A DNA stretch of 64,000 nucleotides, from contig CM046857.1 of NCBI GenBank assembly GCA_025617745.1, forward strand, positions 30,562,514 to 30,626,513, given 5' to 3'. Positions 20-56,100 of the stretch are shown in pieces; the stretch's first letter is position 1; each line of letters opens with the position of its first letter. The notes beneath the pieces were generated by a model. That model was not told where the DNA came from. It made no database searches and saw only the letters and a list, made by a program, of their open reading frames with translations. Position numbers and translations under genes: made by a program. This DNA is from Heliocidaris erythrogramma. Its lineage: Eukaryota; Echinodermata; Echinoidea; Camarodonta; Echinometridae.

Positions 20-1664
20 TTATTGAAAGGGACAGCGAACAGTTGCTGAGATACCATTTTCTGATGTAGGAGTTTGAAATGCTGAGATACCATTTTCTGA
101 TGTAGGAGTTTGAAATGCTGAGATACCATTTTCTGATGTAGGAGTTTGAAATGCTGAGATACCATTTTCTGATGTAGGAGTTTGAAATGCTGAGATACCA
201 TTTTCTGATGTAGGAGTTTGAAATGCTGAGACACCATTTTCTGATGTAGGAGTTTGAAATGCTGAGATACCATTTTCTGATGTAGGAGTTTGAAATGCTG
301 AGATACCATTTTCTGATGTAGGAGTTTGAAATGCCGAGATACCATTTTCTGATGTAGGAGTTTGAAATGCTGAGATACCATTTTCTGATGTAGGAGTTTG
401 AAATGCTGAGATACCATTTTCTGATGTAGGAGTTTGAAATGCTGAGATACCATTTTCTGATGTAGGAGTTTGAAATGCTGAGACACCATTTTCTGATGTA
501 GGAGTTTGAAATGCTGAGATACCATTTTCTGATGTAGGAGTTTGAAATGCTGAGATACCATTTTCTGATGTAGGAGTTTGAAATGCTGAGATACCATTTT
601 CTGATGTAGCAGTTTGAAATGCTGAGATACCATTTTCTGATGTAGGAGTTTGAAATGCTGAAATACCATTTTCTGATGTAGGAGTTTGAAATGCTGAGAT
701 ACTATTTTCTGATGTAGGAGTTTGAAATGCTGAGATACCATTTTCTGATGTAGGAGTTTGAAATGCTGAGATACCATTTTCTGATGTAGGAGTTTGAAAT
801 GCTGAGATACCATTTTCTGATGTAGGAGTTTGAAATACTGAGATACCATTTTCTGATGTAGGAGTTTGAAATGCTGAGATACCATTTTCTGATGTAGGAG
901 TTTGAAATGCTGAGACACCCATTTTCTGATGTAGGAGTTTGAAATGCTGAGATACCATTTTCTGATGTAGGAGTTTGAAATGCTGAGATACCATTTTCTG
1001 ATGTAGCAGTTTGAAATGCTGAGATACCATTTTCTGATGTAGGAGTTTGAAATGCTGAGACACCATTTTCTGATGTAGGAGTTTGAAATGCTGAGATACC
1101 ATTTTCTGATGTAGGAGTTTGAAATGCTGAGATACCATTTTCTGATGTAGGAGTTTGAAATGCTGAGATACCATTTTCTGATGTAGGAGTTTGAAATGCT
1201 GAGATACCATTTTCTGATGTAGGAGTTTGAAATGCTGAGATACCATTTTCTGATGTAGGAGTTTGAAATGCTGAGATACCATTTTCTGATGTAGGAGTTT
1301 GAAATGCTGAGATACCATTTTCTGATGTAGGAGTTTGAAATGCTGAGATACCATTTTCTGATGTAGGAGTTTGAAATGCTGAGATACCATTTTCTGATAT
1401 AGGAGTTTGAAATGCTGAGATACCATTATCTGATGTAGGAGTTTGAAATGCTGAGATACCATTTTCTGATGTAGGAGTTTGAAATGCTGAGATACCATTT
1501 TCTGATGTAGGAGTTTGAAATCCTGATAATTCATGTGCTCTTTTATCTAACCACCTGGTTAACAGTTGTGGAGTAGCGCATAACTTTTCACTGGCACCGC
1601 ACATGGAATCAAAGGAGAGCAGCTTGATTCCACTCCTTCTATTTACAGCTCCCTGATATAACAT
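20..1664 (-). CDS. hypothetical 12-residue-repeat protein, frame broken once
   Basis: No family is recognised. From an ATG at 1664 the minus strand encodes about 48 non-repetitive residues (starts MLYQGAVNRRSG, ends RAHELSG). These run into the 36-bp repeats in the frame ISAFQTPTSENG. At 918-920 one extra C moves this frame to another, which stops at 702. If the extra base is ignored the frame continues to the last unit and ends GISATVRCPFQ then a stop at 20-22, giving roughly 550 residues. The reading stays open upstream of the ATG to a possible splice acceptor (AATTTAG near 1698), so this may be an internal or last exon. The repeat is rich in Ser, Thr, Asn and Gln with no membrane segment. 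It lies on the same strand as the ABCC exons but resembles nothing in that family. It may instead be part of a mobile element. Confidence 0.4.
45..1521 (-). repeat. 36-bp minisatellite, 41 units
   Basis: The 36-bp unit (plus strand starts GCTGAGATACCATTTTCTG) repeats about 41 times. The span of 1477 bases equals 41 x 36 plus one, and the extra base is a C in a CCC run at 918-920. Units differ only by single substitutions, for example GATACC/GACACC and GTAGGAG/GTAGCAG. On the minus strand none of the three frames contains a stop; on the plus strand every frame does. The main minus-strand frame reads ISAFQTPTSENG per unit. There are no unique spacers, so this is not a CRISPR array. Confidence 0.97.
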
Positions 1665-17300: not shown

Positions 17301-20300
17301 GATTGGGTCTATTTCACATCATTTTGATGATTCCAAAAACCCTGTTAGTATTCATGTACACCAATTCTTCTGGAGGCATGATCAACCTTTTCTTTCTCGA
17401 TGTAATCACATGACCAGAACTCAACTTTATCTTTAAGCCCTACCACCGTCAAATTGGCCCAAATTTGATAAGGGATAATTGAGGTTTTCAAAGCTAAAAT
17501 TCAAAATTAACTTCATCGGCTGAGTGTTATGGTATACATACATGTACCTCAAACATTTTGGCCAAAAATCAACACTTTTCAAATAACCAAATCTGTTGGG
17601 TCAAATCAGGTCTGCTCGCTATTCATAAGGACCGCTATTCAAAGAAAACCGCAATTCATTTAACATGCATTATGAATAGCGGTCCTTATGAAGAGTTTTG
17701 AATAATGGTCCTTACGAATAGCGAGGTAATACATGTAGGCCATTTTCGTAATGTATTCAAATTTAATGCTTACCTCTTTGTCAAACTCCTAGTAACGAAC
17801 TATTACATCCACCTGTTACAAGTCATTGTATTTCAATAGTCAGAATGCAGATTGCATACATTAAGTGTTGCTAGGTTGGGCAGACCGAAATGTTTGTCCA
17901 ACCTAACAACGCCCAATCCATGCAATTCACATTCTGACTATTGAAAAAGAATAGGTTTTTACAGGTGAATAGGCAAATGTGTATAAATTTGAATACATTA
18001 CGAAAATGGCCTATTTGTCTATAGTTTGCTCGCTATTCATACAAAACTGCTATTCATTTAGTTATGTGTTATGGATAGTGGTCATTATGAATAAGTGGTC
18101 CTTATGAATAGCGGTCCTTATGACTAGTGCAGTTACCCCGGTCAAATATATTCATATTGACATACATGTCATGTCAATCATTTGCCATGTACAAACAACA
18201 TACATGTAAAGTGCAATGACCTCTTGACCTTTGCTTAAACCTTGAATTCACCTTGTGGATCAAAGAATCGGGAGATGAAATTTGGTATAACTCCACATAT
18301 TTTCTATACCATTATTCATACAAAAAAATTGGAGGACGGAGGTACATGTATAATATTTTTTGTTTGCTTACCACTTTTTCTTAAAAGGAAAGTCCAACCT
18401 GGAATTCAGTTGATTTTAGTAAATGTAGAAAAATGAGAGAAACAGATTAGTGAAAGTTTGAGCAAAGTCTGATAAGAAATAAGAAAGTTATGAATTTTTG
18501 AATTTGTAATCAATCAAAAACAAAGTGGCGACTCTGAAATATCTTGCGAGCTTCTCCCATTTGCTCAGTACAGAAAATTGTGTAAATTTTCACTTTCTTA
18601 TTTTGGATGAAGGAATAGATTTGTTTCATGCAGGTTTTGGGTAAAACATATAAAACATGATTTATCTAAAGCCTCAGTCACAAATACCATTAAGAACTGC
18701 TACGAATGCCGTACGAACGATTTTAAGACCATTTTGTAAGGTCTTCTCAAGAAGGCTGTACGAAACCAGCCTAAGTAGACCGTTCATAGAATGTTTGTGA
18801 GTTCACAGCCTGGTCGATGGTCTTGTCCAAGATTTTTTTCAACGTTGTATGAAACCCCCTCTTCGTAAGGCGTCTGTATGAACGTTGTAAGAACATCGTA
18901 AGAACCACGCAAGATTTTGTAGGGTCGAGAGACAATTCTAGAAGCCTTAAATTCTTACGATGATCGTAAGAACGTCTTAAGATGTTCACAGAGGGCTCTT
19001 ACTTACGAACGGAGATTCGGATGGCGCTCTTACGAACAACTCCTGGCGTTTGTAAGGCGTTCGGAAGGTGCAGGTACACAGCTGCAGCTGTAGTCTCCTT
19101 GGCACTACTGCCATCTTGAAAGTATCAAACTTTCAACAGTCACAGAATTTTCGACAGTACAACGTCAAAAATTCAAACTTTCTTATTTTTTAACGTATTT
19201 TGCTCTAACCTTCACTGATCTGTTTCTATAATTTTTCTGCTTCATTTAAAACCAACTTGTAATTAGGTTGAAGTTCCCCTTTAAAGATAGAAAAAGCTGT
19301 TTTTCACTTTTTGACTAATCAAGTCCAGAAAATTGTAAGAAAAATTTTCAGTAACTTATTATTTCATTTGAATATTTATGTCATTTAAGTCGAATCCTGC
19401 GGAAATGTAAAATGTACAACTTTCTACTGCATATTGCAATAAAACATAAATTTGTACCTGAAGTTAGTTTCAAGGTTATAATCATAACCTATAGTACATT
19501 GGATAAGTGGAGTACAGTGGGTATGGTGGGGCCCACTCAATGTAGCTACTTTACTATACTTCGTGTGTAGAATCTAGGCAGTCATCCACCTCAACTTTTT
19601 CAAACACCACTGCACAAAAGTCAAAGTTAATGGTATAGAATTAATCCGTTGGGTAACATGAAATAATGTTGTTAATTATTCAATTGTCTCCAACGGCCAC
19701 CAGAAGGTGGCAACACACGCAACTGCTGTGTGATGTAGGTTGCTCGACTGCTGTGAAAAAAATCACAGGCAGACCGAGCGGGATTTGAACCCGCGACCTC
19801 TGGGTTACTAGACCAGTGTCATAACCACTAGACCACCAGAGTGCCCTAAGGTGGTCTAGTGGTTATGACACTGGTCTCGTAACCCAGTAACCCAGAGGTC
19901 GCAGGTTCGAATCCCGCTCGGTCTGCCTGTGATTTTTTTCACAGCAGTCGAGCTGGGTTACTGGGTTACGAGACCAGTGTCATAACCACTAGACCACCTT
20001 AGGGCACTCTGGTGGTCTAGTGGTTATGACACTGGTCTAGTAACCCAGAGGTCGCGGGTTCAAATCCCGCTCGGTCTGCCTGTGATTTTTTTCACAGCAG
20101 TCGAGCAACCTATCACACAGCAGTTGCGTGTGTTGCCACCTTCTGGTGGCCGTTGGAGACAATTGAATAATTAACATTATTTTATAATATATGACTCATT
20201 ACAATTGAAACTTTCTAACCCTTTTAATTCAGCGAATGAAAGGAGCTTGTAAGAGATGTTTGCTGAACAATATGGAGGAAATGAGCTCTAAAGTTGGGGT

Positions 20301-23300
20301 CTATTCAAGAGTGCGGAATAAAAAAAGGAGAGAGAAAGTCGATAGAGAGTGAATCAAAAGGCCATAGCACCCACTATGAATGAATTGTCGGATTAGGTTG
20401 ATATTTGGTAGGAGTGTTAAACATAGTTTATTCATTCTATTGCCGTGACTGCCAAGACTTCAAATTGGGAACTTGAGTCCTTTGCAAATGAGAGTGTTTT
20501 AATGCAAGATTAAGAGCACCTCTGTAGCCTGACAAGTGCACAAGACAATGCATATTCACTCCATTGGGGTGTCTTTCTTTGTTCCCTGTTACATACATGT
20601 ACATGTACATGTAATACTGGTTTGTTACCTGTGTAGACCTTCTGTTATCATACACTGAACTTGTAATTTAGCCTATAATTAACTTAAATAGAATTTAGAA
20701 CCTACTCTTTTTCTTGTTCACATTGATTATAAACCTTTAAAGGAGAATGAAACTCGACATACATTAGCTGATAATCATGTGGAAAATTGTCAGCCTGTTC
20801 AAAATATCTTGAAAATACTCTGATTTGATTACTCAGTAAGGAGGACAGTCTCTCTAAAGTTTGCAGATTTCTTGCTAGATATTATCCCATGGGGGCTGCC
20901 ATTTTGAAGAAACTGTGATGTCATTGCGGTACATGTCCATTTACCTGTACACAATGGATAAGAAGTTGCATAATGAATAGTTATTGTATAACTAAAGCCA
21001 CCCATGCAAATTGGCAGCCATCTTGGTACCCCCATTGTCTCACACAGGTGATATCTAAGAGCAGTTGTAGATCTTTGTCACTTCTTTGAAGAATTGACAA
21101 ACCTTTGTCAGACCAAGCAACTTTCAAGTGCATGCCAAATCCTGCTTAACAAAAGAAACAGCTGAACCAAATATCTTGACACAAATATGTTATATGACAG
21201 GATAAAAGTATCTTCATTTGAATGTACATGACTACCAAAAATGGTTTATTATGAGAAAATCCAGTGTCATGCATTCCACAGCTGATCATGAGTGTCACGG
21301 TAGCTAGTGTATAGGTCAGTGGGTATCTCACAAATAGAACTGTTCTGACATTACTTTGTAAAGAAAATGGCAGCCCCCATGGAATAATGTCAAGCAAGGA
21401 AACTGCAACTTTTGGAGACACTGTTCTCCTTCTTAAATTATCAAATAGGAGTAATTTCAAGATATTTGTAATAGGCTGATAATTATCTACATGATTATAG
21501 GCTAATGTTTGTTGCCTTTTATTCCCCTTTAAGGCTATGATCTACATCTACTCTGGTACTCAGCAACGTCCACTTCTGGATATAACGCTAAGGAAAACAA
21601 CTTGTGTGTGTGTGAAGCTGACGAGTGGCTGTGCAGACTACATGTATATACATGATAGTGCAAGTAAAAGCTGTCTCCTGTATGGAGCTAGCAGGGGGAG
21701 GTGCGTGTAGCCAGGATTAGCTTCGTGAATGTAGAAAAAAAAAAAAATGGCTATACGCCTTCTACACACGAAGCTAGGCGTTATTACCCAGCAATCACAT
21801 TCCGCACGGGGTAGTACGACATGAAAAATGCCCTGAAATCACACTTTTCTGATAGTTTCCGCGACCCACAGACCCTTCCCCACAGCGTTTCCTCCTAGGG
21901 AAACGTTTGTAATGACAATTATATTTTGATTGACTCTAATTTTGGAAATATATCCATAAAAAGATGATAAAAATTACAGAAAACTCACCAGCGTTTGCGT
22001 ATCCATGCCTCCGAGGTCATGCAGATCAAAATGGCGGCACGATCGCCGTAATCGAAATCATGAAAACTATTAGGCGCCGTTTGTAAATTTATTATTTAGC
22101 TCAATTATTTACATATAATTCACTATTTAGCTCTTTTCTACGATTATTATACGATAAAATGACATAAAGGATACAATGTTTTATAAATATGAATTTTGCA
22201 ATTTCCATTTTTTTTAAATAATGATTTTACAATATTCATCATATATAAATAATGAATTTTGAAGTTTTCATTATTTATAAATAATGATTTCACAAATTCA
22301 TTATATATCAAATATTATGGAAATTGCAAAATTCATTATTTATAAAACATTGTATCCTTTATGTCATTTTATCGTATAATAATCGTAGAAAAGAGCTAAA
22401 TAGTGAATTATATGTAAATAATTGAGCTAAATAATAAATTTACAAACGGCGCCTAATAGTTTTCATGATTTCGATTACGGCGATCGTGCCGCCATTTTGA
22501 TCTGCATGACCTCGGAGGCATGGATACGCAAACGCTGGTGAGTTTTCTGTAATTTTTATCTTTTTATGGATATATTTCCAAAATTAGAGTCAATCAAAAT
22601 ACAATGTATAATTGTCATTACAAACGTTTCCCTAGGAGGAAACGCTGTGGGGAAGGGCCTGTGGGTAGCCAGGATTGGCTTCGTGAATGTAAAAAAAAAA
22701 AATGGCTATACGCCTTCTACATCACGAAGCCAGGCGTTCTTACCCAGCAATCTAACTGCGCACGGGTTAGCAGGACTGGAAAATGCCCTGAAATATCACT
22801 TTTCTGATAACTCCCGCGACCGATAGCTCCTTCACCACAGCGTATCCTCCTAGGAAAACGTTTAGAATTAGAATGTCTTTTTGATCGTACGTATTTTTAC
22901 AAAAAAATCAAAAAAAGATCGTAAGAAATTTCCGAAAACTCGCCAGTGTTTGTGTGTATCCATGCCTCCTCTTGTCATGCAGATAAGGCATGACAATGGA
23001 TACACACAAACACTGGCGAGTTTTCGGAAATTTCTTACGATCTTTTTTTGATTTTTTTGTAAAAATACGTACGATCAAAAAGACATTCTAATTCTAAACG
23101 TTTTCCTAGGAGGATACGCTGTGGTGAAGGAGCTATCGGTCGCGGGAGTTATCAGAAAAGTGATATTTCAGGGCATTTTCCAGTCCTGCTAACCCGTGCG
23201 CAGTTAGATTGCTGGGTAAGAACGCCTGGCTTCGTGATGTAGAAGGCGTATAGCCAATTTTTTTTTTTTACATTCACGAAGCCAATCCTGGCTATCTGTG

Positions 23301-24263
23301 GGTCGCGGAAACTATCAGAAAAGTGTGATTTCAGGGCATTTTTCATGTCGTACTACCCCGTGCGGAATGTGATTGCTGGGTAATAACGCCTAGCTTCGTG
23401 TGTAGAAGGCGTATAGCCATTTTTTTTTTTTCTACATTCACGAAGCTAATCCTGGCTAGGTGCGTGCCCTGAAGACGCCCAGTGAAGGAGCGGTGATGAC
23501 GTGTGCAGGGAGTGCATTCCAGAGCCTAACTGCTGTTGGCATGAAGGAATATTTGTACACATCCTTGGTTGAGTAAGATGTGAGAGACTGGTATTTTGCA
23601 GGATGTAATTTCTCAGTCTGGTATTTGTCATTGGTTTGGAGTATCTGTCTTTGTCAATGGCGATGAGATTGTGAGTGATCTTGTACATCATTATCTTGAT
23701 TGCGTCTTCCCGTCTGGATTGGAGTGATGCCCAGTGCATTCTCTGAAGCATAGCTGTTACACTCTCAGTACGATGGTAGGCATTCTGCACAAACCTTGCA
23801 GCTCTCCTTTGTATTGCTTCAACCTGGTTAATTGTTGTCACATGGTGGGGATTCCAGATAGTGGAGCAGTACTCCAGATGTGGTCTGACATCCGGTTGGC
23901 TTTGAGGGTCGCCTTGTTTTACATAGAACTTCAATTAGATACTCTTTCCTTGCTCACATGAATAAACTTGATCGTTCGTTAGCAGCGAAATACTTTTTTC
24001 AGACTCTGTTTCGTCATCGAAATGGAACTTACGTCTTAAGTTAAAACTGCTCTGTAATTTTCTTTCGCCATGTTCGCGGCTATTGATATTGATGAACTGT
24101 TAATGTAATGACTTTGTCTTAGTGGAGTGCTGTATCCAGTCCAGCAATGACGAAATAAACGGCAGTGAATGGATTGGACACTTATTCCACAATAATGCCA
24201 CAGTATCATACTTACCCATATTTCTGAACCACAAAATTCGATCCATGAAGTATCATCTGCCAT
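5227..24263 (-). CDS. ABCC1: ABCC/MRP1-type ABC transporter, first five exons
   Basis: This gene encodes the start of an ATP-driven efflux pump of the multidrug-resistance-associated-protein type. Five exons join in phase 0: 24216-24263, 10059-10232, 7840-7968, 6211-6348 and 5227-5349, coding for 204 residues. Each boundary has AG and GT(A/G)AG signals. Hallmarks of MRP1-like TMD0 appear in order: FCGSEIW (residues 10-16), PCFQETVLSWIP, YLRHNDRGFI, YLVTPAVLAITM, ERRKGHQSSG (127-136) and TFYLYFFLLIGQL. TMD0 has five membrane helices and lies before the two transporter cores. The cores and nucleotide-binding domains are not in the window, so the gene must continue left of position 1 or is a partial copy. 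Intact frames argue against a pseudogene. ABCC1 and ABCC3 cannot be told apart from this part; the symbol marks the group. Confidence 0.93.
5350..6210 (-). other. ABCC intron 4
   Basis: 861 bases with no further gene. Near 5510-5640 a few loosely repeated lines of the type GCCCCTAAATTT occur. Otherwise it is AT-rich single-copy-looking DNA. Confidence 0.7.
6211..6348 (-). CDS. ABCC1: ABCC exon 4 (TMD0 helix 4)
   Basis: 46 codons, residues 118-163, containing HVERRKGHQSSG, the most recognisable TMD0 loop of MRP1/MRP3. A helix follows (VLFIFYLITILCAV). The acceptor is CATTTTACAG and the donor GTAAGT. Confidence 0.94.
6424..6650 (-). repeat. tandem copies of the exon 3 end, cluster 2
   Basis: Three more diverged copies of the same unit lie about 1 kb further on, just before exon 4. 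The first reads AYLVIPAVLAVTM followed by GTGAGT (6592-6597). The last reads YLVTPAILTINM followed by GTGTGT. They keep the exon-like reading frame although they are unlikely to be normal exons. Confidence 0.85.
6651..7594 (-). other. central intron 3, no feature
   Basis: Nothing recognised. There are poly(A)/poly(T) runs near 6897 and 7108. The GC-richer part (7300-7580) has only short open frames. Confidence 0.6.
7595..7839 (-). repeat. tandem copies of the exon 3 end, cluster 1
   Basis: Three direct copies, 71-77 bases apart, follow exon 3 inside intron 3. Each reads on the minus strand as the last ~40 bases of exon 3, the ACTATG-GT junction, and about 25 bases of intron (TCACATTCAGATAAG). 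Donor-like sites lie at 7763-7768 (GTGAGT), 7686-7691 (GTGTGT) and 7613-7618 (GTGTGT). Confidence 0.9.
7840..7968 (-). CDS. ABCC1: ABCC exon 3 (TMD0 helices 2-3)
   Basis: 43 codons, residues 75-117, from SLGLLLILLPLLDVC to YLVTPAVLAITM. The acceptor is CTACACAG and the donor GTGAGT (7834-7839). Reading through the donor reaches a TAG ten codons later. The last ~40 bases and the donor are copied several times downstream in intron 3. Confidence 0.9.
8386..9136. mobile_element. TIR element with ~150-bp internal tandem units
   Basis: The ends are inverted copies of GTATCCCCCGGCA (8386-8398) and TGCCGGGGGATAC (near 9124-9136). Inside, a unit marked by GCAGCATCACCA, a CCAAGATACA-like line, TTTGAAAGAAATC and ATGACCTTTGACC starts near 8506, 8658, 8803 and 8959. 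No transposase is present, so it looks like a non-autonomous element in ABCC intron 2. Confidence 0.75.
9137..10058 (-). other. rest of ABCC intron 2, no feature
   Basis: No gene, repeat family or RNA was recognised here. The open frames are short and unlike known proteins. Confidence 0.6.
10059..10232 (-). CDS. ABCC1: ABCC exon 2 (TMD0 helix 1)
   Basis: 58 codons, residues 17-74, with acceptor TCTGTCTCAG and donor GTAGGA. It contains the family motif TPCFQETVLSWIP, a hydrophobic helix (SAFLLILTPFYILYL) and LRHNDRGFIRV, as in MRP1-type N-termini. NAS at residues 22-24 could be an N-glycosylation site facing outside. Confidence 0.93.
10344..10720. mobile_element. CTTAAAG-type MITE, copy 1
   Basis: It starts CTTAAAGGGAAGGTTGAG and ends CTCAACTTTATCTTTAAG, giving terminal inverted repeats of about 24 bases. 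It lies in ABCC intron 1. A second copy at 17058-17437 aligns over its whole length in the same orientation. A small internal tandem of TTTGAGTGAG is private to this copy. Confidence 0.85.
11281..12876. repeat. GAGCCCCAGGGGG repeat with ~330-bp tandem units
   Basis: The left end has CAAGAGCCCCAGGGGGCAC and CGCTCACTTGAG. The right end has GCTCACTCGAGCCTTAGG and TGAGCTAAAA. The inner part repeats a ~330-bp unit (marks: CCTGGGCCCCCTGGGGG, GATGATTCCTACCAAG) near 12058, 12340 and 12668. Similar repeats are widespread in marine invertebrates; that parallel is from memory. Confidence 0.65.
11409..12003 (+). pseudogene. 3' end of a non-LTR retrotransposon (CR1/L2-like)
   Basis: A short open stretch (11420-11551) reads SKIWNALPLEMKSINTVKHF and ends CNYV then stop. 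This is typical of the reverse-transcriptase C-terminus, where a WN.LP motif precedes the stop. A 3' UTR follows, ending AATAAAGTCATTCATTCATT, with the (ATTC)n tail of such elements. Everything upstream is missing, as expected from 5' truncation on insertion. Confidence 0.8.
13213..13345 (+). repeat. dispersed repeat copy 2
   Basis: Partner of 5076-5213; see there. It lies in ABCC intron 1. Confidence 0.85.
13346..17057. other. ABCC intron 1 portion, no gene
   Basis: No exon was recognised. Two short related blocks built on CCATGACTTTTCCATGA lie at about 13617-13680 and 14826-14890. Poly(C) runs lie at about 15412 and 15852-15875 (about 24 C). Several TACATGTA octamers are scattered through. 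Confidence 0.6.
17058..17437. mobile_element. CTTAAAG-type MITE, copy 2
   Basis: Full-length relative of 10344-10720. It starts GTTAAAGAGAAGGTCGAG and ends CAACTTTATCTTTAAG, and lacks the internal TTTGAGTGAG tandem. Confidence 0.85.
17600..18140. mobile_element. GCTATTCAT-type MITE, split by another element
   Basis: It is built from many copies of GCTATTCAT and ATGAATAGC around the core AGCGGTCCTTATGAATAG. The ends are GCTCGCTATTCATAAGG and a diverged inverse before GGTTACCCCG-like sequence. The parts 17600-17734 and 18014-18140 are the two halves. The middle is the palindromic element 17735-18013. Unbroken relatives lie at 27045-27275 and 28000-28266. Confidence 0.8.
17735..18013. mobile_element. 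279-bp full palindrome inside the MITE
   Basis: Its ends are TAGGCCATTTTCGTAATG and the exact inverse. Inner pairs include TTTCAATAGTCAGAATG with CATTCTGACTATTGAAA and GGTTGGGCAGAC with GTCCAACC. It can fold end to end. Comparison with 27115-27140 and 28125-28145 shows the uninterrupted target (GAGGTAATTTGTC). Confidence 0.85.
18381..19284. mobile_element. TTTAAAGG-type TIR element 1
   Basis: The first and last ~130 bases are diverged inverted copies; both read AAACAGAT(T/C)AGTGAA inward. The ends are TTAAAAGGAAAGTCCAACCT and the inverse of TTTAAAGGGGAAC. The middle (18700-19080) is crowded with short inverted pieces of the type CGTAAGAACG. No coding capacity is seen. Confidence 0.75.
19665..20180. 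repeat. inverted cluster of four tRNA-like sequences
   Basis: Outer arms (19672-19853 and 20004-20173) are inverted copies starting TAATTATTCAATTGTCTCC. Each arm has a tRNA-like body with box A (TGGTCTAGTGGTTATGAC), box B (GGTTCAAATCCC) and a Thr-type anticodon loop. Two further copies lie in the centre, also head to head. One central copy has the loop CTCGTAA instead of CTAGTAA. The acceptor stems pair poorly, so these look SINE-derived, not working tRNA genes. Confidence 0.85.
20007..20080 (+). tRNA. tRNA-like sequence (Thr AGU-type loop), probably SINE-derived
   Basis: The D-arm, the anticodon loop CTAGTAA (U33 present, anticodon AGU) and a perfect T-arm GCGGG-TTCAAAT-CCCGC are visible. 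The acceptor stem has only about five of seven pairs and the 3' side is about three bases too long. It lies in the right arm of the palindrome above. Confidence 0.4.
20736..21533. mobile_element. TTTAAAGG-type TIR element 2
   Basis: It starts TTTAAAGGAGAATGAAAC and ends TTATTCCCCTTTAA. The arms are long, about 270 bases, sharing CCATGGGGGCTGCCATTTT and ATAATCATGT. There is no coding capacity. Its ends resemble those of 18381-19284, so the two are probably related families. Confidence 0.8.
21708..23458. mobile_element. fully palindromic foldback element A, 8-bp target duplication
   Basis: It starts TAGCCAGGATTAGCTTCG and ends with the inverse. GGTGCGTG flanks it exactly on both sides (21700-21707 and 23459-23466). 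Almost the whole length is two inverted arms around an AT-rich centre near 22262, including GATCTGCATGACC and GGATACGCAAACGCTGG. Without the inserted copy B it is about 1114 bases. It has no coding capacity. An 8-bp duplication fits hAT-like or P-like transposition. Confidence 0.92.
22666..23294. mobile_element. foldback element B, nested in A
   Basis: A 629-bp shorter relative of A: it starts TAGCCAGGATTGGCTTCG, ends with the inverse, and its palindrome centre is near 22990. It sits inside the right arm of A. The flanks CCTGTGGG (22658-22665) and TCTGTGGG (23295-23302) are an 8-bp duplication with one change. The undisturbed left arm of A has the single copy CCCACAGA, the inverse of TCTGTGGG. 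Confidence 0.92.
24216..24263 (-). CDS. ABCC1: ABCC exon 1 with start codon
   Basis: This exon encodes MADDTSWIEFCGSEIW and ends ATATGG before the donor GTAAGT (24210-24215). The start context is gcaATGG with G at -3 and +4. A longer frame opens at a GTG at 24332, but eukaryotic initiation and family length favour the ATG. MRP1-type proteins have the same short first exon ending in Trp before the first long TMD0 exon. Confidence 0.9.
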
Positions 24264-27044: not shown

Positions 27045-27275
27045 CGGGTCCGCTCGCTATTCATAAAATAGTATTCATATAGAAGACCGCTATTCATTTA
27101 ACATGCGTTATGAATAGCGAGGTAATTTTGTCGATGTTTGCTCGCTATTTAGAAGGACCGCTATTCATACAAAACCGCTATTCATTTGGTCACGCGTTAT
27201 GCATGGATAGCGATCCTTATGAATAAGTGGTCCTCATGAATAGCGGTCCTTCTGACTAGCGAGGTTACCCCGTTC
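27045..27275. mobile_element. GCTATTCAT-type MITE, unbroken copy
   Basis: It starts GGGTCCGCTCGCTATTCATA and ends GACTAGCGAGGTTACCCCG. The inverted ends both contain AGGACCGCTATTCAT or its diverged inverse. The centre reads GCGAGGTAATTTTGTCG, the site where locus 17600-18140 has an insertion. Confidence 0.85.
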
Positions 27276-27999: not shown

Positions 28000-28266
28000 G
28001 GGTACGCTCGCTCTTCATAGAAAACCGCTATTAATTTAACACGCGTTATGAATAGCGGTCCTTATGAATAGTTATGAATAGTGGTCCTTATGAATAGCGG
28101 TCCTTATGAATAGGGAGGTAATTTGTCTATGGTTTGGTTGCTATTTAGAAGGACCGCTATTCATACAAAACTGCTATTCATTTAGTCACGCGTTATGGAT
28201 AGCGGTCCTTATGAAGAAGTGGTCCTTATATGAATAGCGGTCCTTATGAATATAGCTAGGTTACCC
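28000..28266. mobile_element. GCTATTCAT-type MITE, third locus
   Basis: Same family as 27045-27275 with one extra GAATAG/TCCTTAT module. It ends GCTAGGTTACCC. Related sequence (CGTTGT) lies on both flanks but does not abut the ends cleanly. Confidence 0.82.
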
Positions 28267-53242: not shown

Positions 53243-54318
53243 ATGGCAGCTCGAAACCGTTATCACAGAATAACTAATGTCGATCGACGTCGGTTGATAG
53301 AGGCCTTCCAAGGCAACGCCCAGGACTACTTGGAACTGGCTGACAATCTTGGCGTGAAACGTCAGACAGCGAGATCGATAGTGGAAGAACGGAACCACTT
53401 CCTAGGGGTGGGATAAACAACACGACGATGGATGAAGATATGAGACAACACTTGGAAGAAATATTGGATGCGAACCCCCTCCTTACCTTAGTCCAGAGGA
53501 GGCAAAGCCTGAGGGACAATCTCCCGGACAAGCCAGAGGTGTCTAGTACATCCACCATTGCCAGGACGCTGGATGAGATGTTGGTGACCCTCAAGTTAGC
53601 GGAAGATGTTTCTGTGGCCAGTAACTCACCGTGTGTCCTCCAGCAGTGCGTTGAGTACGGTGAGTGGTTTCTGGAGCATGGCGTGCTCGGAAATTGCATC
53701 TTCATAGACGAGACGGGTTACAACGTTTGGACGAGGCGTACCAAGGGAAGGGCTCATCTCGGCATTCCTGAGAGAAGAGTGGTTGATTGGCAGAGGGGGC
53801 GCAACGACAATGTTATATTTGCTGTGTCTGCTGGTGTCGGCCTCGTGCATCGCCAAATCGATTTCGAGACCGTGAAGATGGAAAGCTTTGAGCAGTTCCT
53901 CGCAGCCACAGTAGCCGAGTGCGAGCAGATGTTTCCGTAGGATGAGCCGATCTACTTAGTCTACGATAATGCCAGACCTCATGTCCGTGCTCAACTGCCT
54001 GATGGAGACAACCATAACATCGAGACGAAGCGGCTGCCGCCTTACTCTCCATTTCTGAATATGACAGGAATGGCACATTCAACGTTTAAGGCCACTGTGA
54101 AGAGGGCACTGGGACAGCCTGATCAACAACGGCTGCTTGGAGACAGAGAGGCAGCGCAGAACGCAGGAGTCACGCTACATCAGTGGAGGTGTGACATCCT
54201 ACGAGAGACCGCTGCACAGAGCATCGATGCCATCACACCCGCCAAGTGCACTCAATGGTATAACCACAGCCAGACCTACATGCTAAGATGCCTTGCTCGT
54301 CAAGAGATCGATGGATGA
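53243..54318 (+). pseudogene. IS630/Tc1-like DDE transposase, inactivated
   Basis: A helix-turn-helix start (NVDRRRLIEAF, ELADNLGVKRQTARSI) in one frame stops at 53414. After a 1-base shift near 53405 the main part follows (MDEDMRQHLEE). The first catalytic Asp is in IFIDETGYNVWTRRTKG, typical of the DDE_3 family. A TAG at 53938 interrupts it. The same frame goes on with LVYDNARPHV (second Asp) and LPPYSPFLN. The next residues are MTG where active relatives have an acidic residue, so the third catalytic residue is lost. It reads to TGA at 54316. Inverted ends were looked for and not found, so the element limits are unknown. Confidence 0.9.
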
Positions 54319-55600: not shown

Positions 55601-56100
55601 NNNNNNNNNNNNNNNNNNNNNNNNNNNNNNNNNNNNNNNNNNNNNNNNNNNNNNNNNNNNNNNNNNNNNNNNNNNNNNNNNNNNNNNNNNNNNNNNNNNN
55701 NNNNNNNNNNNNNNNNNNNNNNNNNNNNNNNNNNNNNNNNNNNNNNNNNNNNNNNNNNNNNNNNNNNNNNNNNNNNNNNNNNNNNNNNNNNNNNNNNNNN
55801 NNNNNNNNNNNNNNNNNNNNNNNNNNNNNNNNNNNNNNNNNNNNNNNNNNNNNNNNNNNNNNNNNNNNNNNNNNNNNNNNNNNNNNNNNNNNNNNNNNNN
55901 NNNNNNNNNNNNNNNNNNNNNNNNNNNNNNNNNNNNNNNNNNNNNNNNNNNNNNNNNNNNNNNNNNNNNNNNNNNNNNNNNNNNNNNNNNNNNNNNNNNN
56001 NNNNNNNNNNNNNNNNNNNNNNNNNNNNNNNNNNNNNNNNNNNNNNNNNNNNNNNNNNNNNNNNNNNNNNNNNNNNNNNNNNNNNNNNNNNNNNNNNNNN
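55601..56100. other. assembly gap, 500 N
   Basis: Exactly 500 N, probably a placeholder of nominal size. Reading frames across it mean nothing. Confidence 1.

What the first reader, a model, noticed from the sequence alone, without database searches (positions are those of the whole stretch)
21700..23466. Nested pair of end-to-end palindromic transposons with exact 8-bp target duplications
Element A is a palindrome over almost its whole length, flanked by GGTGCGTG twice. Element B, a shorter sister, sits inside A with CCTGTGGG/TCTGTGGG on its sides. Each end of A and B also contains a smaller hairpin (GCTTCGTGAATGTAGAA against TTCTACACACGAAGC). Neither has coding capacity. Full palindromes are hard to replicate and to clone, so a family that moves in this form is unusual and may be undescribed.
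Basis: partly seen in the sequence, partly recalled or inferred. Interest (0 to 1): 0.85.

Follow-up and report, generated by a model that had tools for sequence, protein, structure and literature searches.

The report
Nested palindromic transposons with self-matching arms
The spot holds two gene-less jumping DNA pieces, one inside the other, each reading the same on both strands almost from end to end; many relatives sit in the same genome, and the two halves of each copy appear to correct each other so that they stay nearly identical.

Summary
Observation confirmed. Element A (21708-23458) is a 1,114-bp palindrome interrupted by its sister B (22666-23294, 629 bp); target duplications are 8 bp (A exact, B one mismatch). 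Both belong to large families in the host genome (1.06 Gb, species not identified): 1,284 exact family ends, 0 in the control. Of 27 fetched B copies 21 have exact 8-bp duplications; among 40 fetched A regions are 33 intact-length copies with duplications (31 exact). The target is palindromic, nnCRYGnn. These are non-autonomous cut-and-paste transposons (palindromic MITE/foldback type), a known kind.

New here: the arms evolve in concert. Arms of one copy differ by 0.27% (A) or 0.91% (B), far below re-paired arms (0 of 300 shuffles as low in each). All 34 A and 28 B copies analysed keep one asymmetric centre; arm haplotypes match in 33 of 34 A and 23 of 28 B copies. This fits arm-to-arm gene conversion. 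Elements also land repeatedly at one site in each other's arms.

The transposase is unidentified. P-type loci examined lack these ends; hAT and MULE remain open; an apparent KDZ link failed because both loci share the DNA outside the end too. Repbase/Dfam were not available, so 'undescribed' is unproven.

The parts
21700..21707 (+). 8-bp target duplication of A, left copy (GGTGCGTG)
   Evidence: identical to 23459-23466
23459..23466 (+). 8-bp target duplication of A, right copy (GGTGCGTG)
21708..23458 (.). Element A, 1,751 bp as found; 1,114 bp without B and one B target duplication
   Evidence: 33 other fetched copies of 1,096-1,116 bp with target duplications
21708..22189 (+). Left arm of A
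   Evidence: inverted repeat with the right arm
22190..22336 (+). Asymmetric AT-rich centre of A, about five 31-bp repeats; its 113-nt core is shared by all 34 A copies analysed
22337..23458 (-). Right arm of A, interrupted by B (22337-22665 and 23303-23458)
22658..22665 (+). 8-bp target duplication of B, left copy (CCTGTGGG, one change from TCTGTGGG)
23295..23302 (+). 8-bp target duplication of B, right copy (TCTGTGGG)
22666..23294 (.). Element B, 629 bp, nearly perfect palindrome
   Evidence: 27 other fetched copies of 628-641 bp
22964..22995 (+). Short asymmetric loop region of B; a 40-nt core around it is shared by all 28 B copies analysed
21719..21775 (+). Subterminal hairpin, left end of A
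23392..23447 (-). Subterminal hairpin, right end of A
   Evidence: mirror of the left one
22677..22731 (+). Subterminal hairpin, left end of B; a stem pair that is A-T in A is G-C in B
23228..23283 (-). Subterminal hairpin, right end of B
   Evidence: mirror of the left one
21865..21872 (+). Recurrent insertion site CCCACAGA in the arm (arm position 158-165); B sits at the mirror position of the other arm
23446..23934 (-). Disrupted target: retroelement-like frame (by look; no Pfam match) into which A inserted

Best explanation
A and B are non-autonomous DNA transposons (palindromic MITE / foldback type) of one extended family. A transposase supplied in trans cuts them out at the shared end TAGCCAGGATT plus a subterminal hairpin and pastes them into a staggered cut, giving 8-bp duplications at a palindromic target nnCRYGnn. 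A landed first, in a retroelement-like sequence; B then landed in A's right arm at a site that family members use repeatedly. Each family arose from one palindrome and was amplified. During and after amplification the two arms of a copy pair with each other (probably as an extruded cruciform or folded strand) and mismatches are repaired, so a mutation on one arm is either erased or copied to the other. Shown: family, ends, duplications, target motif, order of insertion, arm concordance, common centre. Inferred: the transposase, the cruciform/mismatch-repair step, and the origin of the palindrome as an inverted copy of one end of a longer parent.
For: Ends: 643 + 641 exact matches to TAGCCAGGATTNGCTTCGTGAATG, 1,061 + 991 with up to 2 mismatches, 0 for the reversed pattern. 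A: 40 regions fetched (one overlapping another), 33 copies of 1,096-1,116 bp with duplications, 31 exact and 2 with one mismatch. B: 27 fetched, all 27 with both ends; duplications exact in 21, one mismatch in 3, two in 1, not present in 2. Target: C at position 3 and G at 6 in 50 of 70 symmetrised sites for A and 36 of 50 for B. Empty site: joining the flanks gives a continuous reading ...LGVFRARTSPC*. Arms: in A 42 of 15,543 positions differ within copies against a shuffled-partner mean of 140 (lowest 113, 0 of 300 as low); in B 71 of 7,778 against 126 (lowest 105, 0 of 300). Between copies the arms differ by 0.95% (A) and 1.53% (B). Distinct variant sites seen in both arms of at least one copy: A 26 of 59, B 12 of 41. 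Arm haplotypes equal in 33 of 34 A copies (five sites, six classes) and in 23 of 28 B copies (two sites). One asymmetric centre core in all 34 A and all 28 B copies.
Against: No transposase with these ends was found. Homogenisation is incomplete, more so in B: 2 of 28 B copies have no arm mismatch, against 12 of 34 in A; most private variants are on one arm (A 31 of 46, B 28 of 32), and one B site differs between arms in 19 of 28 copies (F = -0.45, near the aligned edge). With a third site added, 20 of 28 B copies match. Many concordant copies may descend from a few symmetrical founders, so conversion events are far fewer than concordant copies. Arm differences were counted as substitutions only. 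The fetched copies are the best matches to the window's copy, not a random sample. Five A copies (L018, L026, L032, L036, L039) share one flank and are not independent insertions. Two of 27 B copies lack duplications, and six of the 40 A regions gave no intact-length pair with duplications.
Confidence: 0.82

Rival explanations
1. Arms are alike only because the copies are young; no correction between arms is needed.
For: The 40 best-scored copies of each family are 96-99% like the window's; 31 of 33 A duplications are still exact.
Against: Arms of one copy are much closer than re-paired arms (0 of 300 shuffles as low), and sites that vary in two or more copies mostly include a copy with the change in both arms at the mirror position (A 11 of 13, B 8 of 9). 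Youth alone does not copy a mutation to the other arm.
Confidence: 0.07
2. Each jump remakes the palindrome from half an element (a hairpin copied to full length), so every new copy starts perfectly symmetrical.
For: 33 of 34 A copies carry the same haplotype in both arms.
Against: All analysed copies of a family keep the same asymmetric centre, which remaking from a half would change; some one-arm variants occur in several copies on the same arm (B sites 160 and 170, left arm only in 5 and 4 copies).
Confidence: 0.08
3. The moving enzyme is a P-superfamily transposase.
For: 8-bp duplications; target preference spread over about 16 bp centred on the duplication (positions -3 to 12), a geometry like the 14-bp palindrome reported for the P element (PMC4168063 passages); eight of 29 P-type matches have an open frame of 869 aa.
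Against: None of the 29 loci with 1.5 kb flanks and none of 8 loci extended to about 6.4 kb has paired family ends; only single scattered hits with 2 mismatches. The outer ends of those elements were not all reached.
Confidence: 0.25
4. The moving enzyme is a hAT transposase.
For: 8-bp duplications and ends beginning TAG (hAT custom, recalled); 76 hAT-domain matches.
Against: The hAT target preference nTnnnnAn (recalled) is absent: T at position 2 in 11 of 35, A at position 7 in 9 of 35. Compared by eye, none of the six hAT matches on the listed part of C1 (up to 67.9 Mb) is within 5 kb of a listed end.
Confidence: 0.25
5. The moving enzyme is a KDZ (Zisupton-type) transposase.
For: Zisupton makes 8-bp duplications (PMC12730594 passages); a KDZ gene on C1 lies 11.7 kb from a B-like end in the right orientation, and a homologous block on C15 has the same layout.
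Against: The C1 and C15 loci also share the sequence outside the end, so the end lies inside one duplicated block and need not be the terminus of the KDZ element.
Confidence: 0.15

Closest known systems
Made1 (human mariner MITE)
   Same: Whole element is a nearly perfect palindrome without genes (PMC1784062 passages).
   Different: Made1 is 80 bp with 37-bp repeats; A and B are 1,114 and 629 bp, with 8-bp duplications and hairpins inside each arm.
Galileo (foldback-like, P superfamily, Drosophila)
   Same: Very long, internally repetitive inverted repeats; 7- or 8-bp duplications at a palindromic target (PMC4168063, PMC3573991 passages).
   Different: Target GTATTAC against nnCRYGnn; no P transposase with A/B ends found. 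The term 'gene conversion' does not occur in either main text.
Tm1 Mutator/foldback family (root-knot nematodes)
   Same: Foldback ends, mostly MITE-like copies (PMC3169594 passages).
   Different: 9-bp duplications; repeats of one element average 93.15% identity and 5 of 61 are identical, against 99.1% (B) and 99.7% (A) here (substitutions only).
Foldback4 (Drosophila)
   Same: Non-coding; terminal palindromes over 400 bp make most of the element (PMC2955051 passages).
   Different: Variable modular centre; A and B have one fixed centre per family.
Inverted repeats of Caenorhabditis genomes
   Same: Arms more alike within a locus than between species; arm-to-arm gene conversion proposed (PMC1803023 passages).
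   Different: Those are gene pairs at fixed loci, not transposons.

Membership tests
MITE / non-autonomous DNA transposon | Multi-copy, non-coding, terminal inverted repeats, target duplications of fixed length | tested here: met
Foldback-type element | Long inverted repeats that make up most of the element, with internal repeats | tested here: met
   the internal repeats are in A's centre only
hAT superfamily | 8-bp target duplication | tested here: met
hAT superfamily | Target preference nTnnnnAn (recalled) | tested here: not met
   T2 11 of 35, A7 9 of 35
hAT superfamily | hAT transposase between the same ends | tested here: inconclusive
   76 domain matches; six on the listed part of C1, none within 5 kb of a listed end by eye; other contigs not comparable
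P superfamily | 8-bp duplication inside a longer palindromic target | tested here: met
   model from PMC4168063 passages; no significance test made
P superfamily | P transposase between the same ends | tested here: inconclusive
   29 loci with 1.5 kb flanks and 8 of them extended, none with paired ends; outer ends not all reached
KDZ / Zisupton | 8-bp duplication | tested here: met
   PMC12730594 passages
KDZ / Zisupton | KDZ transposase between the same ends | tested here: inconclusive
   the nearby end lies in a block shared beyond the end by both loci
Mutator-like (MULE) | 9-11-bp duplications (criterion used in PMC3310237, passages) | tested here: not met
   8 bp; 31 MULE matches in the genome, positions not comparable with the listed ends

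The most novel reading that the evidence does not exclude
A transposon family whose two arms behave like the two alleles of a diploid: arms repeatedly correct each other, variants spread to both arms or vanish, and symmetrical arm haplotypes seed new subfamilies. In addition the family uses a fixed site in its own arms as a landing pad, so that elements nest in one another.
Probability: 0.35. Interest if true: 0.6.

Novelty: new variant of a known kind. Interest (0 to 1): 0.45.

Why it matters
Long perfect palindromes are expected to be unstable, yet this form has more than a thousand ends in one genome. Each copy carries a built-in pair of alleles, so arm-to-arm repair, its direction and its tract length could be measured across many copies of a mobile element. 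Recurrent insertion at one arm site also offers a test of how a transposase chooses targets, and the nesting creates larger foldback structures that may drive rearrangements.

Tried and rejected
P-type transposase as partner: 29 matches, none with family ends within 1.5 kb, 8 loci extended, no paired ends. Long convergent end pairs were expected to be autonomous; of the four pairs of about 4.4 kb on C1 I fetched three, plus one of 3.6 kb (L122-L125). They have about 530-bp inverted repeats and no frame over 130 aa, so they are another non-autonomous family, 'C'. The fourth pair carries the inner repeat of C. Two places with only the start of that inner repeat (L126, L127): L126 is a 717-bp element beside a retroelement-like protease frame, L127 holds a reverse-transcriptase-like insertion (both Pfam matches below the cut-off). 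A 46-aa peptide read in L127 proved to be part of an unrelated, very abundant repeat (150 matches listed, frames up to 1,314 aa). KDZ link: looked good by co-location in two loci, then failed because the sequence outside the end is shared too. Scans of viral and prokaryote contigs with end patterns found 0 (the tool says that near records may be left out). Divergence of target duplications against arm divergence: A not significant (p = 0.17), B p = 0.018; not relied on because the targets are CG-rich. A genome-wide count of insertions at the hot spot was asked nine times and never answered (and again 120). No significance test was made for the target motif; its flanking positions serve as background.

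Full report
Observation. The sequence at 21700-23466 is as described. A is 1,751 bp as found; taking out B and one 8-bp duplication leaves 1,114 bp. A is flanked by GGTGCGTG twice. B is 629 bp and is flanked by CCTGTGGG and TCTGTGGG. A's other arm reads ...GACCCACAGACCC..., the reverse complement of GGGTCTGTGGGTC, so the empty site had TCTGTGGG and the left copy of the duplication has changed once. This fixes the order: A first, B second. B folds on itself with z = -70.9 against 20 shuffles. The left end hairpins of A and B have z = -5.3 and -3.8, 0 of 200 shuffles as stable; one stem pair is A-T in A and G-C in B. No stop-to-stop frame of 110 aa or more lies inside either element.

Where A landed. 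On the minus strand the right flank belongs to a retroelement-like frame (23446-23934). Joining the two flanks with one duplication copy gives a continuous reading ...WNALPAHVITAPSLGVFRARTSPC*, which supports a clean insertion. Pfam gave no match to this frame, so 'retroelement' rests on the look of the sequence, and the reading just quoted is in another frame than the listed one.

The family. The window lies in a 1.064-Gb assembly of 26 contigs with no relatives held; I did not identify the species. The 24-base end pattern occurs 643 + 641 times exactly and 1,061 + 991 times with up to two mismatches; the reversed control gives 0. Of the first 100 exact ends listed, all on C1, 26 neighbouring convergent pairs lie under 12 kb: eleven G-type pairs of 472-641 bp are B-like in size, three A-type pairs of 1,107-1,112 bp are A-like, four of 4,409-4,433 bp belong to a third family, and eight have other sizes.

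Copies of A. I fetched 40 regions around the best matches; one (L048) overlaps another (L044). Thirty-three elements of 1,096-1,116 bp have both ends and duplications: 31 exact, 2 with one mismatch. L044 and L046 also contain longer elements (2,950 and 1,924 bp), enlarged by insertions, with exact duplications. L013, L035, L037, L042, L047 and L048 gave no pair with duplications by this test. Copies of B: 27 fetched besides the window's, all with both ends, 628-641 bp; duplications exact in 21, one mismatch in 3, two in 1, and not present in 2 (L105, L109). Family C (L122-L125): 4.4 kb (one 3.6 kb), about 530-bp inverted repeats, no frame over 130 aa, exact 8-bp duplications in all four.

Target. 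Over 35 A-family sites (33 copies, L046 and the window) the symmetrised base counts show C at position 3 and G at position 6 in 50 of 70, with R at 4 and Y at 5; preference above the flanking positions runs from about -3 to 12. Over 25 B sites the same positions give 36 of 50. So A and B use the same target rule, consistent with one enzyme. The hAT preference (T at 2, A at 7, recalled) is not seen (11 and 9 of 35). The palindromic breadth resembles what is reported for the P element (PMC4168063 passages).

Concerted arms. I aligned left arms and reversed right arms of 34 A copies (window included) and 28 B copies. Within-copy substitutions are 42 of 15,543 (A) and 71 of 7,778 (B). Giving each left arm a random right arm raises the count to means of 140 and 126; 0 of 300 shuffles were as low in either family. 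Between copies the arms differ by 0.95% and 1.53%. Of sites varying in two or more copies, 11 of 13 in A and 8 of 9 in B have at least one copy with the change in both arms at the mirror position. Private variants are in both arms 15 of 46 times in A and 4 of 32 in B. Five A sites define six haplotypes found alike in both arms, in 33 of 34 copies; in B, 23 of 28 copies match at sites 160 and 170, and 20 of 28 when site 247 is added. All copies of each family share one asymmetric centre: 34 of 34 A copies score at least 107 of 113, 28 of 28 B copies at least 38 of 40. One founder palindrome per family, then arm-to-arm correction, explains both facts. Remaking the palindrome at each jump would change the centre. 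Against the reading: most private changes are still on one arm, more so in B; one B site near the aligned edge differs between arms in 19 of 28 copies; 2 of 28 B copies and 12 of 34 A copies are free of arm mismatches; and founder effects reduce the number of independent events.

Self-insertion. Among fetched loci, insertions of family members into family arms were recognised at five places. Three (the window, L044, L124) are at the same arm position 158-165, with CCCACAGG or the complement of CCCACAGA beside the inserted end; one (L047) is at CCCACAGC about 14 bp further in; in L042 two element ends lie beside B-like arm sequence (TCCATGCC and GGCATGGA), counted as one place. In the C1 list, same-strand neighbours 164, 165 and 175 bp apart point to the same region of the arm; the 165 case is L124, the 175 case belongs to the element whose other end is in L047, and the 164 case was not fetched. 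Family arms make up on the order of one thousandth of the genome (my estimate from about 2,050 ends), so this many nested cases suggests preference. I could not get a genome-wide count.

Transposase. P type: 29 domain matches, eight with an open frame of 869 aa; no family ends within 1.5 kb of any, and none paired in eight loci extended to about 6.4 kb. hAT: 76 matches; MULE: 31; KDZ: 5. One KDZ locus lies 11.7 kb from a single B-like end, beyond which about 430 bases show no second arm, and a second KDZ locus has the same layout. But the sequence outside the end is also the same in both, so the block is duplicated and the end is not shown to be the terminus of the KDZ element. The partner therefore stays open.

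Literature. Palindromic or foldback elements without genes are known: Made1 (PMC1784062), Foldback4 (PMC2955051), Galileo (PMC3573991, PMC4168063), Tm1 (PMC3169594). I saw passages of these, not whole texts. Tm1 repeats of one element average 93.15% identity, lower than here. Arm-to-arm conversion is proposed for other inverted repeats (PMC1803023 passages). In the listings (titles and starts of abstracts, several capped at 20) I recognised none that reports allele-like arm homogenisation in a palindromic transposon; most subscription papers, Repbase and Dfam were not searchable.

Verdict. A real, well-formed transposon family of a known kind. Its value lies in the measurable concerted evolution of the arms and the repeated landing site, not in the palindromic form by itself.

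Noticed in passing
window 53344-54318 (+): Two adjoining frames with weak DDE_3 transposase matches (below Pfam's cut-off), separated by a stop: probably a broken Tc1/mariner- or IS630-type element.
   Followed up: no
window 44-1526: A 36-bp tandem array of 41 copies at 98% matches, open in several frames on the minus strand.
   Followed up: no
window 19768-20106: Two tRNA-Thr(AGT) genes in opposite orientation overlapping a 161-bp tandem duplication, with a third, weaker tRNA match between them.
   Followed up: no
window 55601-56100: A run of exactly 500 N: assembly gap or masked stretch.
   Followed up: no
window 18069-18129, 27202-27261, 28045-28256: A 16-bp repeat (near TTATGAATAGCGGTCC) recurs in several short arrays of the window.
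   Followed up: no
L018, L026, L032, L036, L039 (flanks of the element): Five A copies share the same flanking sequence: either a composite repeat that carries A or one target repeat hit several times.
   Followed up: partly
L057-L065: P-superfamily transposase family; eight of these nine loci have an open frame of 869 aa and they share stretches at about 99% identity: probably recently active.
   Followed up: partly
G000 C21:47285726-47285863 and other places: An abundant repeat, often with frames of 1,253 aa, contains LGVHLRKWEQIDAFL near a frame end; not identified.
   Followed up: no
L046:1168-1984: An A copy interrupted by an insert with its own inverted repeats that looks mariner-like (by eye).
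   Followed up: partly
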